From assembly GCA_002898895.1 (NCBI GenBank), contig BEHS01000008.1:1-32143 (forward strand): a stretch of DNA of 32,143 bases. Direction: 5' to 3'. A model generated the notes under the pieces. That model searched no databases and was not told the origin of the DNA. It saw only the letters and a list, made by a program, of their open reading frames with translations. Made by a program: the position numbers and the translations under genes. Source of the stretch: a bacterium HR16. Lineage in GTDB: Bacteria > Armatimonadota > HRBIN16. Positions 3,973 through 31,987 of this stretch are shown here, in pieces (the first letter of the stretch is position 1; each line of letters starts with the position of its first letter).

Positions 3973-6900
3973 TCAGTCGACGACCTCTGGTTCGCGCACA
4001 GGTACTCGCTCCTTCGGGTACACGCCCCGTCGGAACACCGTACGCGCGAACCAGTTGCCCATGTCATCGAACACCGTATACACACAGGGGATAACCACCA
4101 GTGTCAGCAGGGTAGACAGGATTAACCCACCGATGACCGCAATACCCAGCGGCGCGCGGAACTCCGAACCACGTCCAATCGCCAGAGCGGTTGGCAACAT
4201 GCCGAACACCATCGCGAAGGTGGTCATCAGGATCGGGCGCAATCGGGTGGGCCCGGCTTCCAGCAACGCCTGCAAACGCGGCAAGCCGCGGCTGCGCAGG
4301 GTGTTGGTATAGTCCACCAGCAGGATGGCGTTCTTGGTGACCAGCCCCATCAGCATGATGATACCGATCATCGACACGATGTTCAGCGAGTTGCCGGTGA
4401 TAATCAACCCCAGCAACGCGCCGATCATCGCCTGCGGCAGGCTCAGCATGATGGTCAACGGCATCAACAGCGATTCAAACAGCGCCGCCATCAGCATGTA
4501 CACCAGCACAATCGCCAGCATCAACGCCTGCCCCAGGTAACCGCCTTCCTCCTGCTGGAACTGAATCTCTCCAGCCCATCTCAGCTGCACGCCAGGCGGA
4601 GGCAAGTTCGCTTTCGCCAGCGCCTCGTTAATCACCAGCTGCATGTTGCCCGGCGCGTAGCCCGGCTTCAGGAACGCGGTGAAGGTGACCAGCCTCTGAC
4701 GGTTCTTGCGGTCTATCTTGGTTGGTCCGGTGGTCATCTCCACCACAGCCACATCGGACAGACGCACGGGACGCCCGTTGAAGTATCCGATAACCAGATT
4801 GCGTACCGTGTTCACGTCCTCCCGTTGCGCCTTCGTCAACTGCACGCGGATGTTGTATTCCTTACCCGCCTCGCGAAACTTGGTGTCGGTATTGCCCTCG
4901 ATATAGGTGCGCAGAGCAGAGGCAACCTGTGCTACCGTCATGCCCACAGACGCCGCCTTATCGGGGTCTACACGCACCTGCAGCTCGGGCTTGCCCAGCT
5001 TCCACGAGATGTCGGGGTCTACGATGCCTTCAATCGGCGACACCACTGCCATCACGCGCTCGGCGGTGCGCACCAGCAGTTCGGTGTCCTGTCCGGTCAG
5101 CTCAATCTGAATAGGTGCACCACCGCCGCCGCGAAAGCCCGACACCGCGTTGATTCTAATCTTCGCGCCGGGGATGGTTCCTATCTTCTGGCGTATCTCT
5201 TCGGCAATCTCGGAGCTGGGACGGGTGCGCAGATAGGGATGCTTGACCCAGGGCAGCCACCCGGTCAACCTGTCCCCCAGAGCCTGCTTCTCCGCGCAGG
5301 TAATTTGCACTTCGCCGTATTGCGCCCCGCGCCCGCCGGTGCCAAACACGCCTGCAGTGGTGTTGCCTACGCTGGTGAACATGTGCTCTACGTCACGGCG
5401 AATGGAGGGGGTGTTGTATATTACCTCCTCGATACGTGCCAGCACACGGTCGGTCGATGCCAGCGAGGTGCCAGCAGGCATTTCTACCGTGATTTGAATC
5501 AATCCCTGGTCCTGGTCCGGCGCGAAGCGGAAAGGTAATAGCGGTCTTCCCACTGCACTGCCCAGCAAGCCTGAGAGGAAGAACGCCCCTGCCATGATGA
5601 ATGTACCCCATCCGGCGACGAACAGCGGTCTGCGGTTACTGCGCCAAATCAGCGCGAGCAGCCAGAACAGAAAGCCGAACACCGCTGTAAAGCCTGCAAC
5701 GAACGCCGACGGCATCACAAAATGCCTGCCCACCAGCGAGCCGGCGATAATCAGCAGAATGCTCAACAGCAACCCGTTGCCGATGCCGATAACCAGCCAG
5801 CGGCGGCGCAACGCCCGCTCCAGAACGCGCCGATATATCCGGTCCAGTGCGTGATAGAAGCGGTCAAACGCTGCGAACAGACCACGCTTCGCCTCTACCT
5901 GCTCGCCAGTGCGGAACCAGCGCGACGCCAGCATCGGCGTGAGCGTAAACGAAACGAGCAGGGAGAAGAGGGTGGCTGTCGCTACCGTGATGCCGAACGA
6001 GCGGAAAAACTGCCCCACGATTCCGCCCATAAAAGCGATGGGCACGAACACCACCACATCTACCAGCGTGATGGTAATCGCCGCCAGACCGATTTCCGAA
6101 CGTCCGTTCAGCGCGGCTTCTGCAGGCTCCTCCCCACCGGTCAGGTGGCGGAAGATGTTCTCCAGCACCACAATAGAATCGTCCACCAGAATACCTACCG
6201 CCAGTGACAGCGCAAGCATGGTCATGGTGTTTAGCGTGAACCCGAAGCCGTACATCACCAGGAAGGTGCTGACGATGGATGTCGGTATCGCCAGCGAGAC
6301 GATAAAGGTACCACGCAAATTGTGCAGAAAGAGGTACACCACGAACACCGCCAGAAATACCGCCAGGAATAGCGCGACCCGCAGGTCGGTCAGGCTCTCC
6401 AGAACGAATTTGGACTGATCCTGCGTGAGCACGAACTCGATATCTCGTGGCAGCTCCTTCTTCAGTTGCTCTACCTCGCGCTTGACGCCCTCGCAGACCT
6501 CCACCGTATTTGCATCGGCGGCTTTGGTGATGATGATGGCAACCGTATTGCGGGTGTTCACCCGTGCCCCTTCGGTGCGTTCTGCGATGTCATCCTTGAC
6601 AGTGGCCACGTCGGAAAGACGTATCACGTTGGGCGTGCCCATCGGGTTCATGCGGTTTGTGACCGGAATACGCACGTTGCGAATCTGGTCGAGGTTCTCG
6701 AACTCGCCCACTACACGGACGGCATATTCGTGACGCGCCTCCTCGATGCGTCCGCTGGGCACGTTCAGGTTCGCTGCCTGCAGTGCTTGCACTACCTGCA
6801 TGATGTTTAACCCGTAGGCATCGAGGCGCGCCTGGTCTACCTCCACCCGAACCTCGCGCACGTCGCCTCCCACCACCGAAACCGAAGCCACGCCCTGCAC

Positions 6901-7398
6901 GCGAGCCAATCGGTTGCTGACGATTTCCTCCGCGATATAGCGCAACTGCTTGCTGGGGCGGTCACTGGACATACCGTAGTAAAGCACCGGGAAGGCGTTG
7001 ATGTCTATCTTGGAGATAGAAGGCGACAGCGCCTCACGCGGCAGGGAGGCGCGAATGGCATCTACCTTCTCACGCACATCGGCGGCTGCCTGGCTGGAGT
7101 CGATACCCAGATTGAACTCGATGGCAACCAGCGAGATACCTTCCTGCGAAACCGATGTGACGTTTTTGACGCCGTTAATGCCGTTGACCGCGTCTTCAAT
7201 CCGTTTCGAGATGAGCGTCTCCACCTCGCGCGGACCCGCACCCGGGTAGACCGTTGTGACGATCACATACGGGAAGTCCACGCTTGGGTTCAGCTCCACG
7301 CGCATTTTGCCGGCAGCCGTCCAGCCCAGCACCGCCAGCGCAGAGAACACCATCAGGATGAAAACGGGGCGCCGTATTGCAATACTGGTAAGCCACAT
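3973..7398 (-). CDS. RND-family multidrug/HAE efflux pump inner-membrane protein (AcrB/MexB-like)
   Basis: Starts MWLTSIAIRRPVFILMVFSALAVLG; RND motifs VGILVDDSIVVLENI, FAPDQDQG, MGLVTKNAILLVDY. ATG at 7398 with GGGAG upstream preferred over the 7473 start of the track. Confidence 0.95.
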   Translation of the reverse strand: MWLTSIAIRRPVFILMVFSALAVLGWTAAGKMRVELNPSVDFPYVIVTTVYPGAGPREVETLISKRIEDAVNGINGVKNVTSVSQEGISLVAIEFNLGIDSSQAAADVREKVDAIRASLPREALSPSISKIDINAFPVLYYGMSSDRPSKQLRYIAEEIVSNRLARVQGVASVSVVGGDVREVRVEVDQARLDAYGLNIMQVVQALQAANLNVPSGRIEEARHEYAVRVVGEFENLDQIRNVRIPVTNRMNPMGTPNVIRLSDVATVKDDIAERTEGARVNTRNTVAIIITKAADANTVEVCEGVKREVEQLKKELPRDIEFVLTQDQSKFVLESLTDLRVALFLAVFLAVFVVYLFLHNLRGTFIVSLAIPTSIVSTFLVMYGFGFTLNTMTMLALSLAVGILVDDSIVVLENIFRHLTGGEEPAEAALNGRSEIGLAAITITLVDVVVFVPIAFMGGIVGQFFRSFGITVATATLFSLLVSFTLTPMLASRWFRTGEQVEAKRGLFAAFDRFYHALDRIYRRVLERALRRRWLVIGIGNGLLLSILLIIAGSLVGRHFVMPSAFVAGFTAVFGFLFWLLALIWRSNRRPLFVAGWGTFIMAGAFFLSGLLGSAVGRPLLPFRFAPDQDQGLIQITVEMPAGTSLASTDRVLARIEEVIYNTPSIRRDVEHMFTSVGNTTAGVFGTGGRGAQYGEVQITCAEKQALGDRLTGWLPWVKHPYLRTRPSSEIAEEIRQKIGTIPGAKIRINAVSGFRGGGGAPIQIELTGQDTELLVRTAERVMAVVSPIEGIVDPDISWKLGKPELQVRVDPDKAASVGMTVAQVASALRTYIEGNTDTKFREAGKEYNIRVQLTKAQREDVNTVRNLVIGYFNGRPVRLSDVAVVEMTTGPTKIDRKNRQRLVTFTAFLKPGYAPGNMQLVINEALAKANLPPPGVQLRWAGEIQFQQEEGGYLGQALMLAIVLVYMLMAALFESLLMPLTIMLSLPQAMIGALLGLIITGNSLNIVSMIGIIMLMGLVTKNAILLVDYTNTLRSRGLPRLQALLEAGPTRLRPILMTTFAMVFGMLPTALAIGRGSEFRAPLGIAVIGGLILSTLLTLVVIPCVYTVFDDMGNWFARTVFRRGVYPKERVPVREPEVVD

Positions 7399-7423
7399 AC
7401 TCCCTCTCTCCCCTCCGCCTGAA

Positions 7424-8890
7424 CTAGGAACCGCCTGCGGTTGACGCTTCCGCGGTCTGCAACTGTTCCACACGCACTTTGTCGCCGTCGCGCAGGTTCT
7501 CCTGTCCCTGCACCACTACCTGCGCGCCCACCGGGATACCCCGCACCTCGGCGTTCATGCCGTTGATGTAGCCTGTCTGCACTGTCACCCGCCGGGCAAC
7601 GCCCTCTTTGACGACAAACACCACCTGCTTGCCGTCTTGTATGAGTATGGCGTCTTTCGGGATGAGCACGACGTTGCGATGTACATCCACCAGTATCTCG
7701 CCGCGCGCGAACATCTCCGGCTTTAGCGCACCACCCTCATTGCGCATATCCACACGCACCACGAAGTCGCGCGAGCCCTCCGAGCCAACAGGATAGAGCC
7801 GGCTCACCGTACCACGAAACTGTCTGCCCGGATAGGCGTCCACCGTCACGGTCACCGGCTGTCCCACGCGAACATAGCGCACCTCTGTCTCGGAGACACG
7901 CGCCTCGAAGAAGATGGCATTCAGGTTCACAATACGCAGTAGCGGCGTACCTGCCCCCGCCATCTGCCCGGGCTGTGCTGCACGCATGGCAACTGTGCCG
8001 TTGATGGGCGAGCGGATGAACGCACTTTCATACTGCTGACGTGCGTAGAACAGACCCGCCTCCGCCTGCGCCACCAGCGCCTTCGCCGCGTTGACCTCAT
8101 CCTGACGCACACGCAACTGCAGGTCTCCTGTGCGCGCCAGGCGAACCGCTTCCTCCGCTTGCTTGACCAGCGCACGCTGCGCGTCGATCTCCTCCTGGCG
8201 TGGGCCCTCCTGTACCAGGCTCAGCTGCTCCTGCGCGGTTCGATATTGCGCCAGTGCGATGTCATAGGCGGTTTGGGCGGCATCCAGCTGCTGTTTGGAC
8301 ACCGCATCTTGCTGATAGAGACGGCGCACTCGCTCCAGGTTCGCCTGCGCGTTCTCCAGATTCGCCTTTGCGGAAGCTACCTGTTGCTCCACCTGTTGCC
8401 GCTCCTGACGGCGCGCCCCTGCCTCCAGTGCCCGCAGACGAGCCCTCGCCGCTTCCAGCGCAGCTTCCGCCTGACGCAGGCTGGTCTCGTTCTGGGTCGG
8501 CTGCAACTCCAGAGCAGTTTGCGCCTGCTTGAGCCGCGCGCGAGCCGACCTCAGCGTCGCCTCTGCCTGACGCAGCTGCGCTTCGAGGTCGTTGGTCTCC
8601 AGCTGTACCACCACCTGCCCTGCCCGCACGGCGTCCCCCTCGCGCACAAAAACCTTCGCAATCTTGCCCGGCACCTTGGCGGAGAGCATCACGTCGTCCA
8701 GTGTCTGCAGGGAGCCTGTCACCGAGACGGTAAACGGGATGTCGCCGCTACGCGCGCTCACCACTGCTACGGCGGTTGCCGGTGCAGCGGCTTGCTGTGT
8801 AGGGGAAACCGGTGCACGTCGCGCACACCCACCAAGCAGACCTGCTAACCCCAGCAGGGCGAAACCTGCGATAAGTGCCTTCCGGTACAC
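7424..8890 (-). CDS. RND efflux membrane fusion protein (lipoprotein, AcrA-like)
   Basis: GTG start at 8890 with AAAGGAGGGG upstream gives VYRKALIAGFALLGLAGLLGGC (lipobox); biotinyl/lipoyl hairpin and long coiled coil; located between tolC-like and RND genes. Confidence 0.92.
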   Translation of the reverse strand: MYRKALIAGFALLGLAGLLGGCARRAPVSPTQQAAAPATAVAVVSARSGDIPFTVSVTGSLQTLDDVMLSAKVPGKIAKVFVREGDAVRAGQVVVQLETNDLEAQLRQAEATLRSARARLKQAQTALELQPTQNETSLRQAEAALEAARARLRALEAGARRQERQQVEQQVASAKANLENAQANLERVRRLYQQDAVSKQQLDAAQTAYDIALAQYRTAQEQLSLVQEGPRQEEIDAQRALVKQAEEAVRLARTGDLQLRVRQDEVNAAKALVAQAEAGLFYARQQYESAFIRSPINGTVAMRAAQPGQMAGAGTPLLRIVNLNAIFFEARVSETEVRYVRVGQPVTVTVDAYPGRQFRGTVSRLYPVGSEGSRDFVVRVDMRNEGGALKPEMFARGEILVDVHRNVVLIPKDAILIQDGKQVVFVVKEGVARRVTVQTGYINGMNAEVRGIPVGAQVVVQGQENLRDGDKVRVEQLQTAEASTAGGS

Positions 8891-8936
8891 TGCAATGCCC
8901 CTCCTTTGTGAAATCGCCTTTATTATCTCTCCCTTA

Positions 8937-10271
8937 TCAGGGTGCCTGTGCATATCTGCCCATCGCTTTCTCGAGGCGCGCCCACGCCACACGCAGGTCA
9001 TAGCGGGCGTTGACGAGATTCTGCTCTGCCTGCGTGTATGCCAGCTCGGCGTCGCTCAACTCCAGCTGGGTGGAGACCCCCGCCTCGTAACGCAGGCGAG
9101 CCACACGCAAGCTCTCGGTAGCCGCCTGTAAACCCTTTTCCGCCGCCGCTACCTTCTCGCGCGCCTCTTGCAGGCTCAGGTAGGCGTTGCGCACCTCTAA
9201 CGCGATGCCTTCGCGCACGTTCTCGATAGTGATTTTTGCCTTATCTACGTCGGCGCGTGCCTGCTCGATGCGTCCCTGAGTCTGTCCACTATCCCAAATC
9301 TTGAACTGCAGAGCAGCGATCGTGGTGAAACTGGATTCGCGAGGCTGGAAGGTGGAGGTTTTCAGGTTGAAATCCCACTGCCCACGCACCACCAGGCTGG
9401 GCAACTGGTCACGCTTTGCCGCGGTGACCTGCTTCTCCGCCAGCGAAACGCCCAGATTCGCCTGCATCATCTCAGGACGTCTGGAGAGAGCCTCCTGCAG
9501 ATACCGGTTGAACTCCGCCGGTTCAGGCTCCGGTTCCTCAGCAGGCAACAGTTCTACCGGCTCATCGACGCGCCTGCCCAGCACGTTGTTGAACGCCGCC
9601 TTCGCCAGCTGCAGGGCGTTTCGCGCGGTAATCACCGCCTGTTGCGCAGAGGCGACAGCCGCATCGGCACGCATCACATCCAGCTTTGGGCTAACACCTG
9701 CCTCTACCGCTGCTTGTGCCAGCTTACGCCGGATTTCCGCATTCTGCAACGCCTCTTCCGCTACCTTCACCAGCTCCTGTGCACGCAACACATCGTAAAA
9801 CGCCTGCTTCACCTGCAGCACAACCTCGTTGCGTGTGCGTTGCGCGTCCAGATTGGCGATGCGCGAATACAGCGAAGCGGCGTCCGTCGCGGTACGAACC
9901 AGTCCGCTCACATCTATCACCTGGCTCAGGCTCACCGTCGCTGTGCCCGAATCGATGGGTTGAATCTCTATCTCGTTAAAGGTAAAAGTTCCTGTGATGG
10001 GGTCAAAAGAAGGGAACTTCGCTTTCGGCACGCGGTCCAGCCGGCGATAGTTTGCGGAGACATCCAGCTGGGGATAGCCTGCTCCCCTCGCTTCGCGTAC
10101 ACGTGCGTTGGCTTTCCGCTCATCCTGCAGCGCCAAGCGCAGCGTTCGGCTGTTCTGTAAAGCGATGCGAATACTGTCCTGAAGGGTTAACGCCGATGGC
10201 TGCTGTTGTGCCCACCCACCTGCCGACAGCACGACAGCCAGCAGCACCACATGCAGTCGCAACAGTTTCAC
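8937..10271 (-). CDS. TolC-family outer-membrane efflux protein
   Basis: 444 aa, signal peptide, LTLQDSIRIALQNSRTLRLA and repeated ELxxAELAYTQAEQNLVNARYDLRVAWARLEKAMG; overlaps the upstream AbrB gene by GTGA. Confidence 0.93.
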   Translation of the reverse strand: MKLLRLHVVLLAVVLSAGGWAQQQPSALTLQDSIRIALQNSRTLRLALQDERKANARVREARGAGYPQLDVSANYRRLDRVPKAKFPSFDPITGTFTFNEIEIQPIDSGTATVSLSQVIDVSGLVRTATDAASLYSRIANLDAQRTRNEVVLQVKQAFYDVLRAQELVKVAEEALQNAEIRRKLAQAAVEAGVSPKLDVMRADAAVASAQQAVITARNALQLAKAAFNNVLGRRVDEPVELLPAEEPEPEPAEFNRYLQEALSRRPEMMQANLGVSLAEKQVTAAKRDQLPSLVVRGQWDFNLKTSTFQPRESSFTTIAALQFKIWDSGQTQGRIEQARADVDKAKITIENVREGIALEVRNAYLSLQEAREKVAAAEKGLQAATESLRVARLRYEAGVSTQLELSDAELAYTQAEQNLVNARYDLRVAWARLEKAMGRYAQAP

Positions 10272-27130: not shown

Positions 27131-27147
27131 ATAACCCTAAAAAGGTG

Positions 27148-27179
27148 TTGACAGATTTAGCTGAAGATAGTAGTATAAT
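27148..27179 (+). promoter_or_regulatory. Sigma70-like promoter upstream of the helicase gene
   Basis: TTGACA at 27148-27153; TAGTAT at 27171-27176 (17-bp spacer), overlapping TATAAT at 27174-27179 (20-bp spacer). Confidence 0.6.
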
Positions 27180-27254
27180 GCCATAGGCATCGGGAGGTAT
27201 GCCGCGTACAGCCGCGCTCAGCATATTCTACCAATCTTCAAGGGAGTGGGGTTT

Positions 27255-30200
27255 ATGCTGGTATATTGCACAGAGGAGTTCAAAAATAGACTCAAGCAGC
27301 TTAATCTTGTGGATAAGTTCGCAGAGATCGAGGGGGCGATCCGACAAGCAGAAGCTGTGCCCCGCTTGGTCGATGCTGGACTAGAACCGTACCACGGGAT
27401 CTGGATAAAGAAATTAGGTGGAGTAGGAACGGTTAGCCAACTTCGGATGCTCAGCTGCGTTATTAATGTAAAGCACCATAGTGCATTGGTGCTTTGCTTT
27501 TTTGCTCTGCTCAAAAGATCGGATCAAGAATACGACAAGATTCGGAAAATGCTTGAACAGGGGCGATATTCCCCGCCTGTTTCTGAAGAGGAGGTAGACT
27601 CCTGGCTTAACTCTCTACCACACCTCGAAGAAACAGACACTGGACGTCTACCGCCGTTAGAAAGCAGTTACAGGGTCTGGTTTCACCCGCTTGGGGGACT
27701 TGCAAAGTCTGCTGACGATGCGGTTTACGAGTCTATTGAGTGGTGCAAAAGATCGCGCGACAACGAGACACAGACATTCTGGCAAGATTACTACAAACTT
27801 GTCGGTGACGTGATAGACGATGATACTGCTGGAGAGGAGATTGAAATAGATGGAGCAACCTTGCGCTATCATCGTAGAAACAGACGAGGAATACTTTTCC
27901 AAAGGTACGATCTCGAAGGACGCTTGCAGATCTTATTGCTATTACAGACTGCAGCCCATCACAACCATGTCGACGAAGCACGTAGACTGTTAACAACTCT
28001 CCAAATTGACAAGATTAGCTCTTGTGATGACATCGCCAGAGTAGCAGGAAGAGCATATCCATACTATATTCTAGCAGACGACCAACTGTGGCACGATATT
28101 CAGAATGACCAAACCGCCAATCTTGCCCTGTCAGCAGAGGAAGAAAATCTGCTTTCAGACGCCCTTGCACTTCCTCACCAGTTACCGTTATTTATAAACG
28201 GACGAGCAGGCAGTGGCAAGTCGACGATGCTTTACTACCTCTTCGCTCGATATATAGAACGCGCTCTGAGGCTTCATTGCCCGGAGAAGCTCATTTTCCT
28301 CACCTACAGCGAGCCGCTGTTGCACATAGCCAAGCAGTCTGTGACCAATGTTTTAATGTCCCAGCTAAGCCGTCAAAGTGTAAAATCGTCAGATAACAAA
28401 CTTGATGAAGTGATTGAACAATGCTTCTGGCCATTCCAAAAGTTCCTGCTGCAGCTTGTACAGAAGCAGGCAGACGAAGCGAAACGGACAAGCCAAGACC
28501 TATTGTTCCCCTCCCACAAGTACGTTGATTTTCGTGAGTTCAAGCAGATCCTCTGTCGCTGTCATCTGCCTGAAGCCAGGCAGTTTTCTCCGGAGACAGT
28601 GTGGCATGTCATCCGTACTTACATTAAGGGTTACAAAGTCGATGATTTCCTTTCTCCCGATGAGTACGAGGATATCCCCCGAGATGAACGAACGGTGGAC
28701 AAAGAAACATACGCTGTAATCTATGATAGAATATGGCATTGGTATCAAAACTTACTCGACAGTGACGGACTCTGGGACGATCAGGATCTCGTGCGTTACG
28801 TGCTGTCCCTGAACATAAATGACATGCCTTGGTTTATAGCGATATTTTGCGATGAAGTACAAGACTTTAGTCGCGTAGAGTTCCAGCTGCTTTTCAAACT
28901 CTCCATTGCGTCTAGGTTCAATCTGCCTCCTGAAGCTACCAACCTGCCATTTGCTTTCGCTGGCGATCCGTTGCAGACTATTAGCCCTACGGGATTTCGT
29001 TGGGAAGCACTGAAAGCGGCGTTTTACAACAACGTCGTAGCTCCGCTTGGTGTCCTCGGAGACCACTACTCGCTTAAGGAGAGAGAACTAGAGTACAACT
29101 ACCGTTCGACCCCGGAAGTCACCCGCTTCGCCAATTTAGTACAGCTATGGCGCAGTGCAATATTTAATCGCCTTTCGGTCAAGCCGCAGAAGCCGTGGCA
29201 AGCTGTTCGTGGCGCCGTTCCCGGCTTATACATTATCGAGCGTGATGTTTCAGCAGCCCAGTTTGCTGAGAGTGCCCAGAAAAAGGAATATACCATCATT
29301 GTACCCTGCGAGCTTGGCGGCGAAGAAGATTTTGTGAGGCAAGACGATGTCTTAGGACGACTTGAAGGTATTGCTAATATTTGGAGCCCCTCTGCAGCCA
29401 AGGGGCTCGAGTTCCGACAGGTGATAATATACAAATTTGGCGATCACTGTACTGTCGATTTCGAAAACAAGGAGCGCAATGACATTCGTGAAGAGTACTT
29501 CTTCAATAAACTTTATGTCGCTGTCACTCGCGCCAGGGAAAGACTTTTCATCGTGGACACCATAGAGGGATATGAAAAGCTGTGGAAGTACTTTACTGAA
29601 CAAGCATATGGGAACCTGTTACAGAACGAGCAAATTAGGCGAAGATGGAACGAGCATGATGTGCAAACTTTTGCACAGGACATACCTGTCGAGGTAATCC
29701 AGGCCGACAAGCCGTTGGAAATCGCTGAGCAGCTGCAAGTGAAAGGTGAACAATCAGACGATGCGCTGTTGTTACTACGCGCTTCCGAATACTACACCCT
29801 CGCTGGGGATAGCTTTCACGCAAGCCTCTGCAAGGCCAGGGCACAGCATCTTTTAAGAGACTACGATAGCGCTGGTAAGCTGTATACAGAGATTGGCAAG
29901 CATCAGGAAGCTTTCGAAAGCTACTGGCAAGGCAGGTTATGGAGAGAAGCATATAATCTACAATGCCAGTTCTCAGTAGGCAACGACGTACAGCGCGATG
30001 TCGTTAATTCAATGGTAACGCAGGGAGAGGTGGATTTCGTAGAGAGGGCTGTGTCATTAATTGATAAGAGTCTTTATAGACTGTCTCAATATCCTGAACA
30101 CTTGGGTGATTTAGCTGCTCGTTATGTGAAAGCTACTGAATATTTGCTCAGCCATGCCAACTATTCTGCCGAAGAGCCATGGGAAAAGCGAGGGGACTGC

Positions 30201-31760
30201 GCTATACGCATGGCTGATATGGCTACCATAGACTTTGAAACCCGCAAGGGTTTGCGTACCGTCGCTTTCCTTTGCTTCTATAGGACGCAGAGATGGACTA
30301 GCGCAGTCGATGCAGCAGAACGAGCAGGTATTCGCGACGGACGCGAATACTTTGAGGCAAAGGCATATGCTGAGGGGATGCCTGCTGGGCTGCAATGGCT
30401 AGCACGTCTCCGCGACGGTGACGAGCGGATACTGAGCGAATGGCAGAAGGCTGGAAAGCCCATGAATAGGGAGTGGGCGAGGTATTTGACCCGTCCTCTG
30501 GAAAACGCACGGAAATTTGTCGAACTGACACAAGCCTATGAGGAGCTCGCCGAACCGTATAGAATTCTGGATGTTTTAAACAACGCCATCCTTTCTGGAA
30601 AAGTAACCGAAGATGAACTAATAGGTTCGATACGTGCTCTGCAAGAACTGCCCGTCTGGCATTCTAAGGTAGACCTAATAAGTGCAGCCGAGGGTAGATA
30701 CGCCCAGATCGCGGAGAAGCTGATTGATCTCCTGTCTAATGCAGTGATTGCATCTCCTTCTGACAAGGACGTAGACGAAAACAAACGCAGGCTACGTTTG
30801 TCTTACGTAAGGCTAATTAAGAATATGTTGAGTCGTAAGCCTGCTGATACTCAGGCACTCTCACGCCTTTTCAAAGCGTCGTTAGCGCTAGGAGCACGAG
30901 ACGAGACATCCCGGTCTGCCTACATGCTCCTGCGTCAATACGATGTCTCATCTCAAGAATTCAGCAAGATAGTCTCTGACATTAACGCTGCAAGGCTCTT
31001 GGGCCATACAATACAGGTGATGGCAGATGATATAGCAGACAGTGCCGAAGCAGCCGCCAAGCTGCTACATTACGTTCTTACTTATCCAGAGGCTGAACAG
31101 ACAAAAAGTCTCCGAGTGGTTACTTCAGCTATTGAGACGATGATACAAGGACTCATTGACTCCACACAATGGAAAGTTTACATAAGTGCCAATAATCTGT
31201 TTTCCGCATACATAATTCTCCAAGAGAACCACATTGACGCATTGCGTTACCTAGAATCGTTCACAGAACACCAGGATACCGAACTTCGCGACAGCGCTCG
31301 CTCATGTTGGTTACAAATGAAGCGGAAACAAATCACGTACCATGAGAGCAGGAGTGAAAACGCTGCAGCGGAAAGGACGAGGCGTGAGCTTGTACGTAGG
31401 ATGAAAGATTGGGGTATGCTTGTGGAGACAACAGAACCGACCAAGTTGGAGGCTGCACGGTTCTTGTGGTTGGTAGACGGTGATGTAACGTTTGAAGAAG
31501 ACGATGAGGCTTTCTACACTTCTCTAGGACAGGTTGGGCTTCGCTTGCTCAAAAGGCGAAAGAAGATGATTCTTGTCAACGCTGTTAGCTTTGCTTACTA
31601 TACTATTGATATGATAGGCGCCACACAGGCGGCAACGAGTCCGATCTGGGAGATCGTGCACATAGAGAGTGAAAAGCGCGGAAGGTATACCATCAAGGTC
31701 GGTGATCGCGTTGTAACGGTAACGACACGGCAAAAGCAAGTGCAAACCAAATATACTTAA
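27255..31760 (+). CDS. Giant UvrD/Rep-like SF1 helicase with possible RelE-like N-terminus and long TPR-like C-terminus
   Basis: Walker A LFINGRAGSGKSTMLYYLF, Walker B IFCDEVQDFSRVEFQLL, FAGDPLQTISPTGFRWEAL, LEYNYRSTPEVTRFANL, AAKGLEFRQVIIY, FFNKLYVAVTRARERLFIVD. ATG at 27255 (LVYCTEEF...) preferred over GTG 27246. Confidence 0.92.
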   Translation: MLVYCTEEFKNRLKQLNLVDKFAEIEGAIRQAEAVPRLVDAGLEPYHGIWIKKLGGVGTVSQLRMLSCVINVKHHSALVLCFFALLKRSDQEYDKIRKMLEQGRYSPPVSEEEVDSWLNSLPHLEETDTGRLPPLESSYRVWFHPLGGLAKSADDAVYESIEWCKRSRDNETQTFWQDYYKLVGDVIDDDTAGEEIEIDGATLRYHRRNRRGILFQRYDLEGRLQILLLLQTAAHHNHVDEARRLLTTLQIDKISSCDDIARVAGRAYPYYILADDQLWHDIQNDQTANLALSAEEENLLSDALALPHQLPLFINGRAGSGKSTMLYYLFARYIERALRLHCPEKLIFLTYSEPLLHIAKQSVTNVLMSQLSRQSVKSSDNKLDEVIEQCFWPFQKFLLQLVQKQADEAKRTSQDLLFPSHKYVDFREFKQILCRCHLPEARQFSPETVWHVIRTYIKGYKVDDFLSPDEYEDIPRDERTVDKETYAVIYDRIWHWYQNLLDSDGLWDDQDLVRYVLSLNINDMPWFIAIFCDEVQDFSRVEFQLLFKLSIASRFNLPPEATNLPFAFAGDPLQTISPTGFRWEALKAAFYNNVVAPLGVLGDHYSLKERELEYNYRSTPEVTRFANLVQLWRSAIFNRLSVKPQKPWQAVRGAVPGLYIIERDVSAAQFAESAQKKEYTIIVPCELGGEEDFVRQDDVLGRLEGIANIWSPSAAKGLEFRQVIIYKFGDHCTVDFENKERNDIREEYFFNKLYVAVTRARERLFIVDTIEGYEKLWKYFTEQAYGNLLQNEQIRRRWNEHDVQTFAQDIPVEVIQADKPLEIAEQLQVKGEQSDDALLLLRASEYYTLAGDSFHASLCKARAQHLLRDYDSAGKLYTEIGKHQEAFESYWQGRLWREAYNLQCQFSVGNDVQRDVVNSMVTQGEVDFVERAVSLIDKSLYRLSQYPEHLGDLAARYVKATEYLLSHANYSAEEPWEKRGDCAIRMADMATIDFETRKGLRTVAFLCFYRTQRWTSAVDAAERAGIRDGREYFEAKAYAEGMPAGLQWLARLRDGDERILSEWQKAGKPMNREWARYLTRPLENARKFVELTQAYEELAEPYRILDVLNNAILSGKVTEDELIGSIRALQELPVWHSKVDLISAAEGRYAQIAEKLIDLLSNAVIASPSDKDVDENKRRLRLSYVRLIKNMLSRKPADTQALSRLFKASLALGARDETSRSAYMLLRQYDVSSQEFSKIVSDINAARLLGHTIQVMADDIADSAEAAAKLLHYVLTYPEAEQTKSLRVVTSAIETMIQGLIDSTQWKVYISANNLFSAYIILQENHIDALRYLESFTEHQDTELRDSARSCWLQMKRKQITYHESRSENAAAERTRRELVRRMKDWGMLVETTEPTKLEAARFLWLVDGDVTFEEDDEAFYTSLGQVGLRLLKRRKKMILVNAVSFAYYTIDMIGATQAATSPIWEIVHIESEKRGRYTIKVGDRVVTVTTRQKQVQTKYT

Positions 31761-31783
31761 AATAGCCCCCAGAGAGTAAAAAC

Positions 31784-31823
31784 TCGTCTGCCAAAAGATC
31801 TGTATGGTGTTCTTTGCAAACGA
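31784..31823. other. Imperfect inverted repeat in the intergenic region after the helicase gene
   Basis: TCGTCTGCCAAAAGA (31784-31798) versus TCTTTGCAAACGA (31811-31823; reverse complement TCGTTTGCAAAGA), 12-nt loop. Confidence 0.45.
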
Positions 31824-31987
31824 CTGGAAAACAAGCTGAGCATCTCGTACGCCCTTTTTTGAAATTCGTAGGTCTATCCCGCGATTCCCCCCTGACAAGC
31901 AAACCATTGTGTGTTATCTCATAATACTGGGTGTGCAATTGGCAAACTGCAGGCTCCTTGACAAGACGAAGGTGAGGGAGGTTTGCC

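What the first reader, a model, noticed from the sequence alone, without database searches (positions are those of the whole stretch)
27255..31760. 1,500-aa standalone SF1 helicase with TPR-like C-terminus: candidate uncharacterised defence or conflict protein
All UvrD-type helicase motifs are present (GRAGSGKST, CDEVQD, GDPLQT, YNYRST, KGLEFRQV, VAVTRARERL). The catalytic core covers only the middle part of the protein (about 28.1-29.6 kb). It is followed by ~700 aa of helical, TPR-like sequence (e.g. LLLLRASEYYTLAGDSFHASLCKARAQHLLRDYDSAGKLYTEIGKHQEAFESYWQGRLWREAYN). Housekeeping UvrD/Rep/PcrA proteins are about half this length and lack such a tail. Large multidomain NTPases fused to helical repeats are common in prokaryotic immunity (established generally); a defence role here is inference.
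Basis: partly seen in the sequence, partly recalled or inferred. Interest (0 to 1): 0.82.

Follow-up and report, generated by a model that had tools for sequence, protein, structure and literature searches.

The report
RNase–helicase–repeat protein, likely phage defence
The gene encodes one very large protein that joins a ribosome-targeting RNA-cutting toxin domain to a DNA/RNA-moving motor and a long repeat scaffold; it arrived by horizontal transfer and its relatives often sit inside bacterial anti-virus gene clusters, so it is probably a one-gene immune weapon related to, but distinct from, the recently described ArmD protein.

Summary
The ORF is real (27255-31760, +, 1501 aa), with all UvrD-type motifs and a ~710-aa helical tail. 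Residues 1-100 form a RelE-type mRNA-interferase domain: the AlphaFold model matches E. coli RelE, and the only residues of the first 158 conserved in over 90% of 79 homologues are R64 and Y93. With R88 (90%) they match RelE's catalytic R61, Y87 and R81. The protein is thus RelE RNase + SF1 helicase + alpha-solenoid + small beta domain.

The gene is a single-gene insertion: GC falls from 0.60 to 0.48 across it, and three sister genomes keep the empty site. It is in 6 of 291 Armatimonadota genomes and at least 87 other loci, mostly filamentous cyanobacteria but also many other phyla. Outside cyanobacteria about 10 of 36 loci have defence neighbours; some copies sit inside Type I/III restriction or DISARM-like operons.

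Published ArmD of ARMADA Type II (RelE + GajB-like helicase, 704 aa) is the nearest tested architecture; it lacks the tail and is a more distant helicase, so this is a new, tailed, often standalone subfamily. Defence is likely but untested; abortive versus direct action is unresolved. Observation confirmed, interpretation partly supported.

The parts
27255..31760 (+). Whole gene: RelE-like RNase + UvrD-type SF1 helicase + alpha-solenoid + C-terminal beta domain, 1501 aa
   Evidence: ORF and translation; collinear full-length homologues of 1350-1713 aa
27255..27557 (+). RelE-like mRNA-interferase domain (aa 1-~101); putative catalytic residues K52, R64, R88, Y93
   Evidence: AlphaFold2 model; Foldseek hits to RelE/HigB/ParE and Cami1; conservation R64 77/79, R88 71/79, Y93 76/79, K52 69/79; RelE roles of K52/R61/R81/Y87 from PMC2807027
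27717..28124 (+). Conserved accessory alpha/beta region between RNase domain and helicase (aa ~155-290), fold not assigned
   Evidence: AlphaFold2 model, high pLDDT over most of it; invariant or near-invariant E159, W163, R266, Y268, P269, W279
28122..29624 (+). UvrD-type SF1 helicase core (aa ~290-790)
   Evidence: Pfam PF00580 and PF13361 above cut-offs; motif columns invariant or nearly so in 79 homologues
29712..31409 (+). Alpha-helical solenoid, TPR-like (aa ~820-1385)
   Evidence: AlphaFold2 model, Foldseek to TPR/solenoid proteins; roughly the first 300 aa are high confidence, aa ~1136-1285 low
31512..31754 (+). Small C-terminal beta-rich domain (aa ~1420-1500), moderate to low confidence
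   Evidence: AlphaFold2 secondary structure
27131..31884 (.). Inserted segment (about 4.75 kb, one gene) between lemA and a radical-SAM-type gene
   Evidence: GC drop; window 27130 and 31887 are adjacent (within a few nt) in sister genomes L140, L143, L144; no flanking repeats or integrase found
27148..27179 (+). Promoter-like site (TTGACA .. TAGTAT/TATAAT) inside the inserted segment
   Evidence: the pattern is no more frequent than chance, so suggestive only

Best explanation
The protein is probably a self-contained anti-phage (conflict) effector. Its N-terminal RelE-type domain would cut mRNA in the ribosomal A site. The SF1 helicase would act as the ATP-driven sensor/switch, engaging phage nucleic acid or transcripts. 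The long solenoid and beta domain would hold the RNase in check and recruit the ribosome or the infection signal. Shown here: architecture, conservation of the RelE catalytic residues, horizontal single-gene acquisition, and embedding of homologues in restriction/DISARM-type operons. Inferred: RNase activity, what activates it, and the defence phenotype.
For: RelE fold: Foldseek E. coli RelE 2kc8 prob 0.99 and 4fxe prob 0.97 with TMt 0.62, Mtb RelE2 3g5o TMt 0.64, Cami1 as top hit. R64, R88 and Y93 correspond to RelE R61, R81 and Y87, and R64 and Y93 are the only >=90% positions in the first 158 residues. The sister subfamily B (RelE + the same helicase type + clear TPRs) gives a sequence-level RelE/ParE match (hhalign P=1.1e-4) and has the closest helicase core (67-181 bits, against 40 for UvrD, 29 for ArmD, 17 for AddA). 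Insertion with empty site and GC shift. Patchy: 6/291 genomes of the phylum. Phyla mixed in the tree outside cyanobacteria. Operon embedding: L040 between HsdS and HsdR, L064 ahead of Type III Mod/Res, L075 between DrmMI and DrmA, L081 next to PDC-M68B, L053 near DrmA. ArmD, with the same RNase-helicase head, is essential for ARMADA defence (PMC12458937).
Against: No activity data. Direct sequence comparison of this family's N-terminus with RelE is weak (hhalign P=0.037; ParE E=0.13 in one of 26 members), so RelE rests on structure, conserved residues and the bridging subfamily. About two thirds of non-cyanobacterial loci and most cyanobacterial ones have no evident defence neighbour, and no matched random control for neighbourhood was possible. 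ARMADA acts non-abortively (PMC12458937), which does not fit simple translation shut-off.
Confidence: 0.55

Rival explanations
1. Translation or RNA quality-control factor: the RelE-like domain docks on stalled ribosomes and trims mRNA, the helicase removes mRNA or nascent complexes, and the solenoid is a scaffold (analogous to helicase plus TPR surveillance complexes such as Ski). It would be beneficial but not primarily anti-phage.
For: Largely vertical occurrence in filamentous cyanobacteria among ordinary genes; solenoid hits include Ski3 and ribosome-bound NatA (unspecific).
Against: Patchy, horizontally moved, absent from most relatives; copies inside Type I/III R-M and DISARM-like operons.
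Confidence: 0.2
2. Partner subunit that works only with other defence proteins (ArmD-like): the helicase and RelE domain help a methyltransferase/YprA/restriction complex against phage DNA directly, without abortive translation arrest.
For: ArmD in ARMADA Type II has the same head and is required together with three other genes (PMC12458937); L075, L040 and L064 lie inside such operons.
Against: In this genome it came in alone with no partner gene within the inserted 4.75 kb; most homologues lack a conserved partner.
Confidence: 0.15
3. Ordinary DNA repair helicase (UvrD/Rep/PcrA type) with an extended tail.
For: Pfam UvrD domains above cut-off.
Against: The genome has its own UvrD (L001, 742 aa frame, 261 bits) and AddA-like proteins; this family is accessory and carries an RNase domain with conserved active-site residues.
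Confidence: 0.05
4. The RelE-fold domain is a non-catalytic adaptor (for example a ribosome- or nucleic-acid-binding module), and the helicase is the effector on phage DNA.
For: RelE-like domains in helicases such as CoCoNuT CnuH show no detectable sequence conservation with characterised RelE-family members (PMC11090510); in ArmD the tested essential residue is in the helicase, and no RelE-domain mutant is among those reported in that section.
Against: Here R64, Y93 and R88 are the most conserved residues of the domain and match those most critical for RelE catalysis.
Confidence: 0.15

Closest known systems
ArmD of ARMADA Type II (E. coli ATCC 8739 WP_000218176.1; PMC12458937)
   [quoted passage not shown] defence context; helicase Walker A essential in ArmD
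   Different: 704 aa, no solenoid tail, obligate four-gene operon; helicase core only 29 bits to this family's profile, below housekeeping UvrD at 40 and far below subfamily B at 67-181
Subfamily B: RelE-SF1 helicase-TPR proteins of the same genus, cyanobacterial plasmids and a Paraclostridium plasmid (named here; annotated only as UvrD-helicase or TPR proteins)
   Same: Same domain order, nearest helicase cores, RelE-like N-terminus with its own conserved Arg and a HDD motif
   Different: Shorter (about 720-1100 aa, with repeat-expanded copies), recognisable TPRs, no large solenoid/beta tail
Cami1 (CARF-RelE effector of type III CRISPR)
   Same: RelE RNase domain fused to a sensor; top Foldseek hit of the N-terminal model; mRNA cleavage at the A site (PMC11229360)
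   Different: Sensor is a CARF domain for cA4; no helicase, no solenoid
CnuH of CoCoNuT Type II/III-A (PMC11090510)
   Same: RelE/colicin D-like RNase domain next to an SF1 helicase
   Different: UPF1-like helicase, other domains, works within a McrBC-like CoCoNuT system
GajB of Gabija
   Same: UvrD-type helicase in defence; best PADLOC match (E 3.8e-9)
   Different: No RNase domain or solenoid; needs GajA (own knowledge); only short stretches matched

Membership tests
UvrD-type SF1 helicase | Walker A/B and motifs III-VI intact | tested here: met
RelE/ParE toxin superfamily | RelE fold (beta-alpha-alpha-beta-beta-beta) | tested here: met
   AlphaFold2 plus Foldseek, probability 0.9-0.99, TMt 0.55-0.64 for the best RelE chains; E-values 0.04-0.14 with a 310-aa query
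RelE/ParE toxin superfamily | Catalytic residues equivalent to R61, R81, Y87 | tested here: met
   R64 77/79, R88 71/79, Y93 76/79; R64/R88 pairing with RelE arginines in hhalign
RelE/ParE toxin superfamily | Significant sequence match to RelE/ParE profiles | tested here: inconclusive
   Own family weak; the bridging subfamily B gives P=1.1e-4
RelE/ParE toxin superfamily | Ribosome-dependent mRNA cleavage | not testable with these tools
   Needs biochemistry
ARMADA Type II (ArmD) | RelE-like domain N-terminal to a UvrD/GajB-like helicase | tested here: met
ARMADA Type II (ArmD) | Operon with ArmA, ArmB and ArmC | tested here: not met
   Window neighbours are efflux, LepA, GH116, LemA and similar genes; none is a YprA/PglX/BrxHII gene
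ARMADA Type II (ArmD) | Orthology of the helicase to ArmD | tested here: not met
   ArmD scores below housekeeping UvrD with this family's helicase profile; length 704 against 1501 aa
TPR protein | TPR motif detected by profile | tested here: not met
   No TPR at E<=1; only fold-class similarity
Anti-phage defence gene | Located with known defence genes more often than chance | tested here: inconclusive
   About 10 of 36 non-cyanobacterial loci, several operonic, but few cyanobacterial loci and no matched control
Anti-phage defence gene | Protection in a phage assay | not testable with these tools
   Needs experiment

The most novel reading that the evidence does not exclude
A new, widespread one-gene immune system: a ribosome-targeting RelE RNase held in check and triggered by its own SF1 motor and solenoid sensor, with no antitoxin and no partner proteins, shared by filamentous cyanobacteria and spread by transfer across about ten phyla.
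Probability: 0.35. Interest if true: 0.8.

Novelty: new variant of a known kind. Interest (0 to 1): 0.6.

Why it matters
It would extend the RNase-helicase module, so far reported as one subunit of ARMADA, to a family of single giant proteins. That suggests RelE toxins can be controlled in cis by a motor and scaffold instead of by an antitoxin. It gives a simple test system (one gene, defined catalytic residues) for how a translating ribosome is targeted during infection, and it may explain part of the unassigned large UvrD proteins of multicellular cyanobacteria.

Tried and rejected
A conserved operon partner: clustering of neighbours found only lineage synteny and generic families. A direct HMM match of the N-terminus to solved structures found only KaiC noise. 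ParE in the own genome: none. Phage records: no match; plasmids only distant subfamily B-like hits. Target-site duplications or terminal inverted repeats at the insertion: none of note. Membership in ARMADA as ArmD: rejected on context, length and helicase score. An ordinary repair helicase: rejected because a separate UvrD exists and this gene is accessory. A resemblance of the post-helicase region to animal TRANK1 is from memory only; literature searches found no paper linking TRANK1 to prokaryotes and it was not tested. The first genome-contig scan with the single sequence found nothing; the alignment-based one worked.
Full report
Observation. The ORF 27246-31760 (+) is open, with an ATG at 27255 and 1501 codons. 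Pfam reports only UvrD-helicase and UvrD_C above cut-off. The window is the whole contig C8 of a draft genome. The phylum is Armatimonadota: hit G043:C167 is the 38,244-base contig titled 'Armatimonadetes bacterium isolate S016_27'.

N-terminal domain. An alignment of 59 homologues gave an AlphaFold2 model of residues 1-310 with mean pLDDT 86. Residues 1-~100 have the order beta, alpha, alpha, (alpha), then four strands. Foldseek against the PDB is dominated by RelE, HigB and ParE toxins: E. coli RelE 2kc8 probability 0.99; 4fxe 0.97 with TMt 0.62; Mtb RelE2 3g5o TMt 0.64. Cami1, a CARF-RelE effector, is the top hit. E-values are modest because the query is 310 aa and RelE covers under a third of it.

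Catalytic residues. In the first 158 residues only two columns reach 90% identity across 79 homologues (threshold as computed): R64 (77/79) and Y93 (76/79). R88 is Arg in 71/79 and K52 is Lys in 69/79. E. coli RelE cleaves A-site mRNA with Y87, R61 and R81 as the critical residues and K52/K54 in support (PMC2807027). The order and approximate spacing agree, and the weak hhalign between the family and bona fide RelE/ParE proteins of the same phylum pairs R64 and R88 with the RelE arginines (P=0.037). A stronger bridge is subfamily B, found in the same genus and on cyanobacterial and clostridial plasmids: RelE-like N-terminus, the same type of helicase, then TPRs. Its N-terminus matches RelE/ParE at P=1.1e-4, and its helicase core is the closest relative of the window family (67-181 bits, against 40 for the genome's own UvrD, 29 for ArmD and 17 for AddA).

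Tail. AlphaFold2 of residues 775-1501 (56 homologues, mean pLDDT 77.5) shows a helical solenoid at about aa 820-1385, very confident over roughly its first 300 residues, and a small beta domain at about 1420-1500. Foldseek returns TPR superhelices, Ski3, NatA subunits and other solenoids with low TM-scores. This supports an alpha-solenoid scaffold, not a specific family. Pfam detects no TPR here, whereas subfamily B members of the same genus have unmistakable TPRs.

Origin and distribution. GC content falls from about 0.60 to 0.47-0.49 exactly over this gene. In three sister genomes (L140, L143, L144) the end of lemA and the sequence matching window 31887 onward are separated by only a few bases, so the gene is an insertion of about 4.75 kb. 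No direct or inverted repeats or integrase were found. No sister genome in the genus has the gene. In the phylum 6 of 291 genomes have it, and a pattern-based scan of 84,980 species found at least 87 loci (a lower bound). About half are filamentous cyanobacteria, the rest spread over Pseudomonadota, Bacteroidota, Acidobacteriota, Planctomycetota, Verrucomicrobiota, Bacillota, Chloroflexota, Myxococcota and others. The tree has one largely cyanobacterial group and a well-supported group (100*) of strongly mixed phyla, and the Armatimonadota members fall in separate places. One viral-contig member (L162) lies beside an IS5-like transposase and terminase genes (identified by eye).

Neighbourhood. 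There is no conserved partner across the family. In non-cyanobacterial loci, PADLOC marks strong defence neighbours: L040 has Type I HsdS upstream and HsdR downstream of the gene; L064 is followed at 17 nt by Type III methyltransferase and restriction genes; L075 lies between DrmMI-like methylase genes (38 nt) and a DrmA-like gene (4-nt overlap); L081 is 35 nt from PDC-M68B; L053 is near DrmA; L062, L068 and L092 are near methyltransferases or a Type II helicase; L045 is near a Cas10; L057 is near an NsnA-like gene. That is about 10 of 36 loci. Cyanobacterial loci have few such hits. The two scans were not matched in extent and no random control could be run, so this is supporting evidence only. 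In the window itself the neighbours are ordinary: efflux pump, LepA, sugar enzymes, LemA.

Prior knowledge. [quoted passage not shown] All four genes are needed for phage defence, ArmD K266A abolishes it, and defence is direct rather than abortive. I located ArmD in E. coli ATCC 8739 (4239557-4241671, 704 aa). It has no tail and is a distant helicase. Subfamily B links both groups: its profile scores ArmD at 103 bits and the window protein at 185, against 72 for UvrD. So the window protein works like an ArmD-type RNase-helicase but is not ArmD and not ARMADA.

Mechanism. The most likely reading is a one-protein effector: RelE RNase for the damage, SF1 motor for sensing or gating, solenoid and beta domain for recognition and restraint. 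The single-gene insertion with no antitoxin or partner supports self-sufficiency. Which nucleic acid the motor engages, what releases the RNase and whether cells survive are unknown. Because ARMADA is non-abortive, translation shut-off should not be assumed.

Verdict. Observation confirmed; interpretation partly supported and sharpened. Novelty is a new variant of a known kind (RelE-helicase conflict proteins), with an untested but testable one-gene defence hypothesis.

Noticed in passing
L153 (own genome C1:64866-67460), L151, L152, L154-L157: A second RelE-helicase-TPR family (subfamily B) occurs in 7 of 10 genomes of the genus; the own-genome copy is interrupted by a TAG, and in G005 the TPR array is expanded within a 2812-codon open frame.
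   Followed up: partly
L148, L149, L150 (plasmids pEu1, pHD0315_2-4, pCRI9333.06): Subfamily B genes sit near ParA-type genes (ParB too on pEu1) on plasmids typed non-mobilizable where shown, suggesting a plasmid-borne conflict or maintenance role.
   Followed up: partly
L162:184-4536: A family member at the edge of an IMG/VR contig beside an IS5-like transposase and phage terminase genes (identified by eye): possible prophage cargo.
   Followed up: partly
L040:8466-18131, L064:4728-17562, L075:5692-16251: Homologues embedded in Type I R-M, Type III R-M and DISARM/ARMADA-like operons; good candidates for experimental follow-up.
   Followed up: partly
L012:8445-11660 and L006:4999-6000: In one Armatimonadota genome the gene follows a Nudix-like protein (judged by eye from the sequence) and a large protein of unknown family.
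   Followed up: no
window 3973-10271: RND efflux operon (AcrB-type pump, HlyD, OEP), ordinary.
   Followed up: yes
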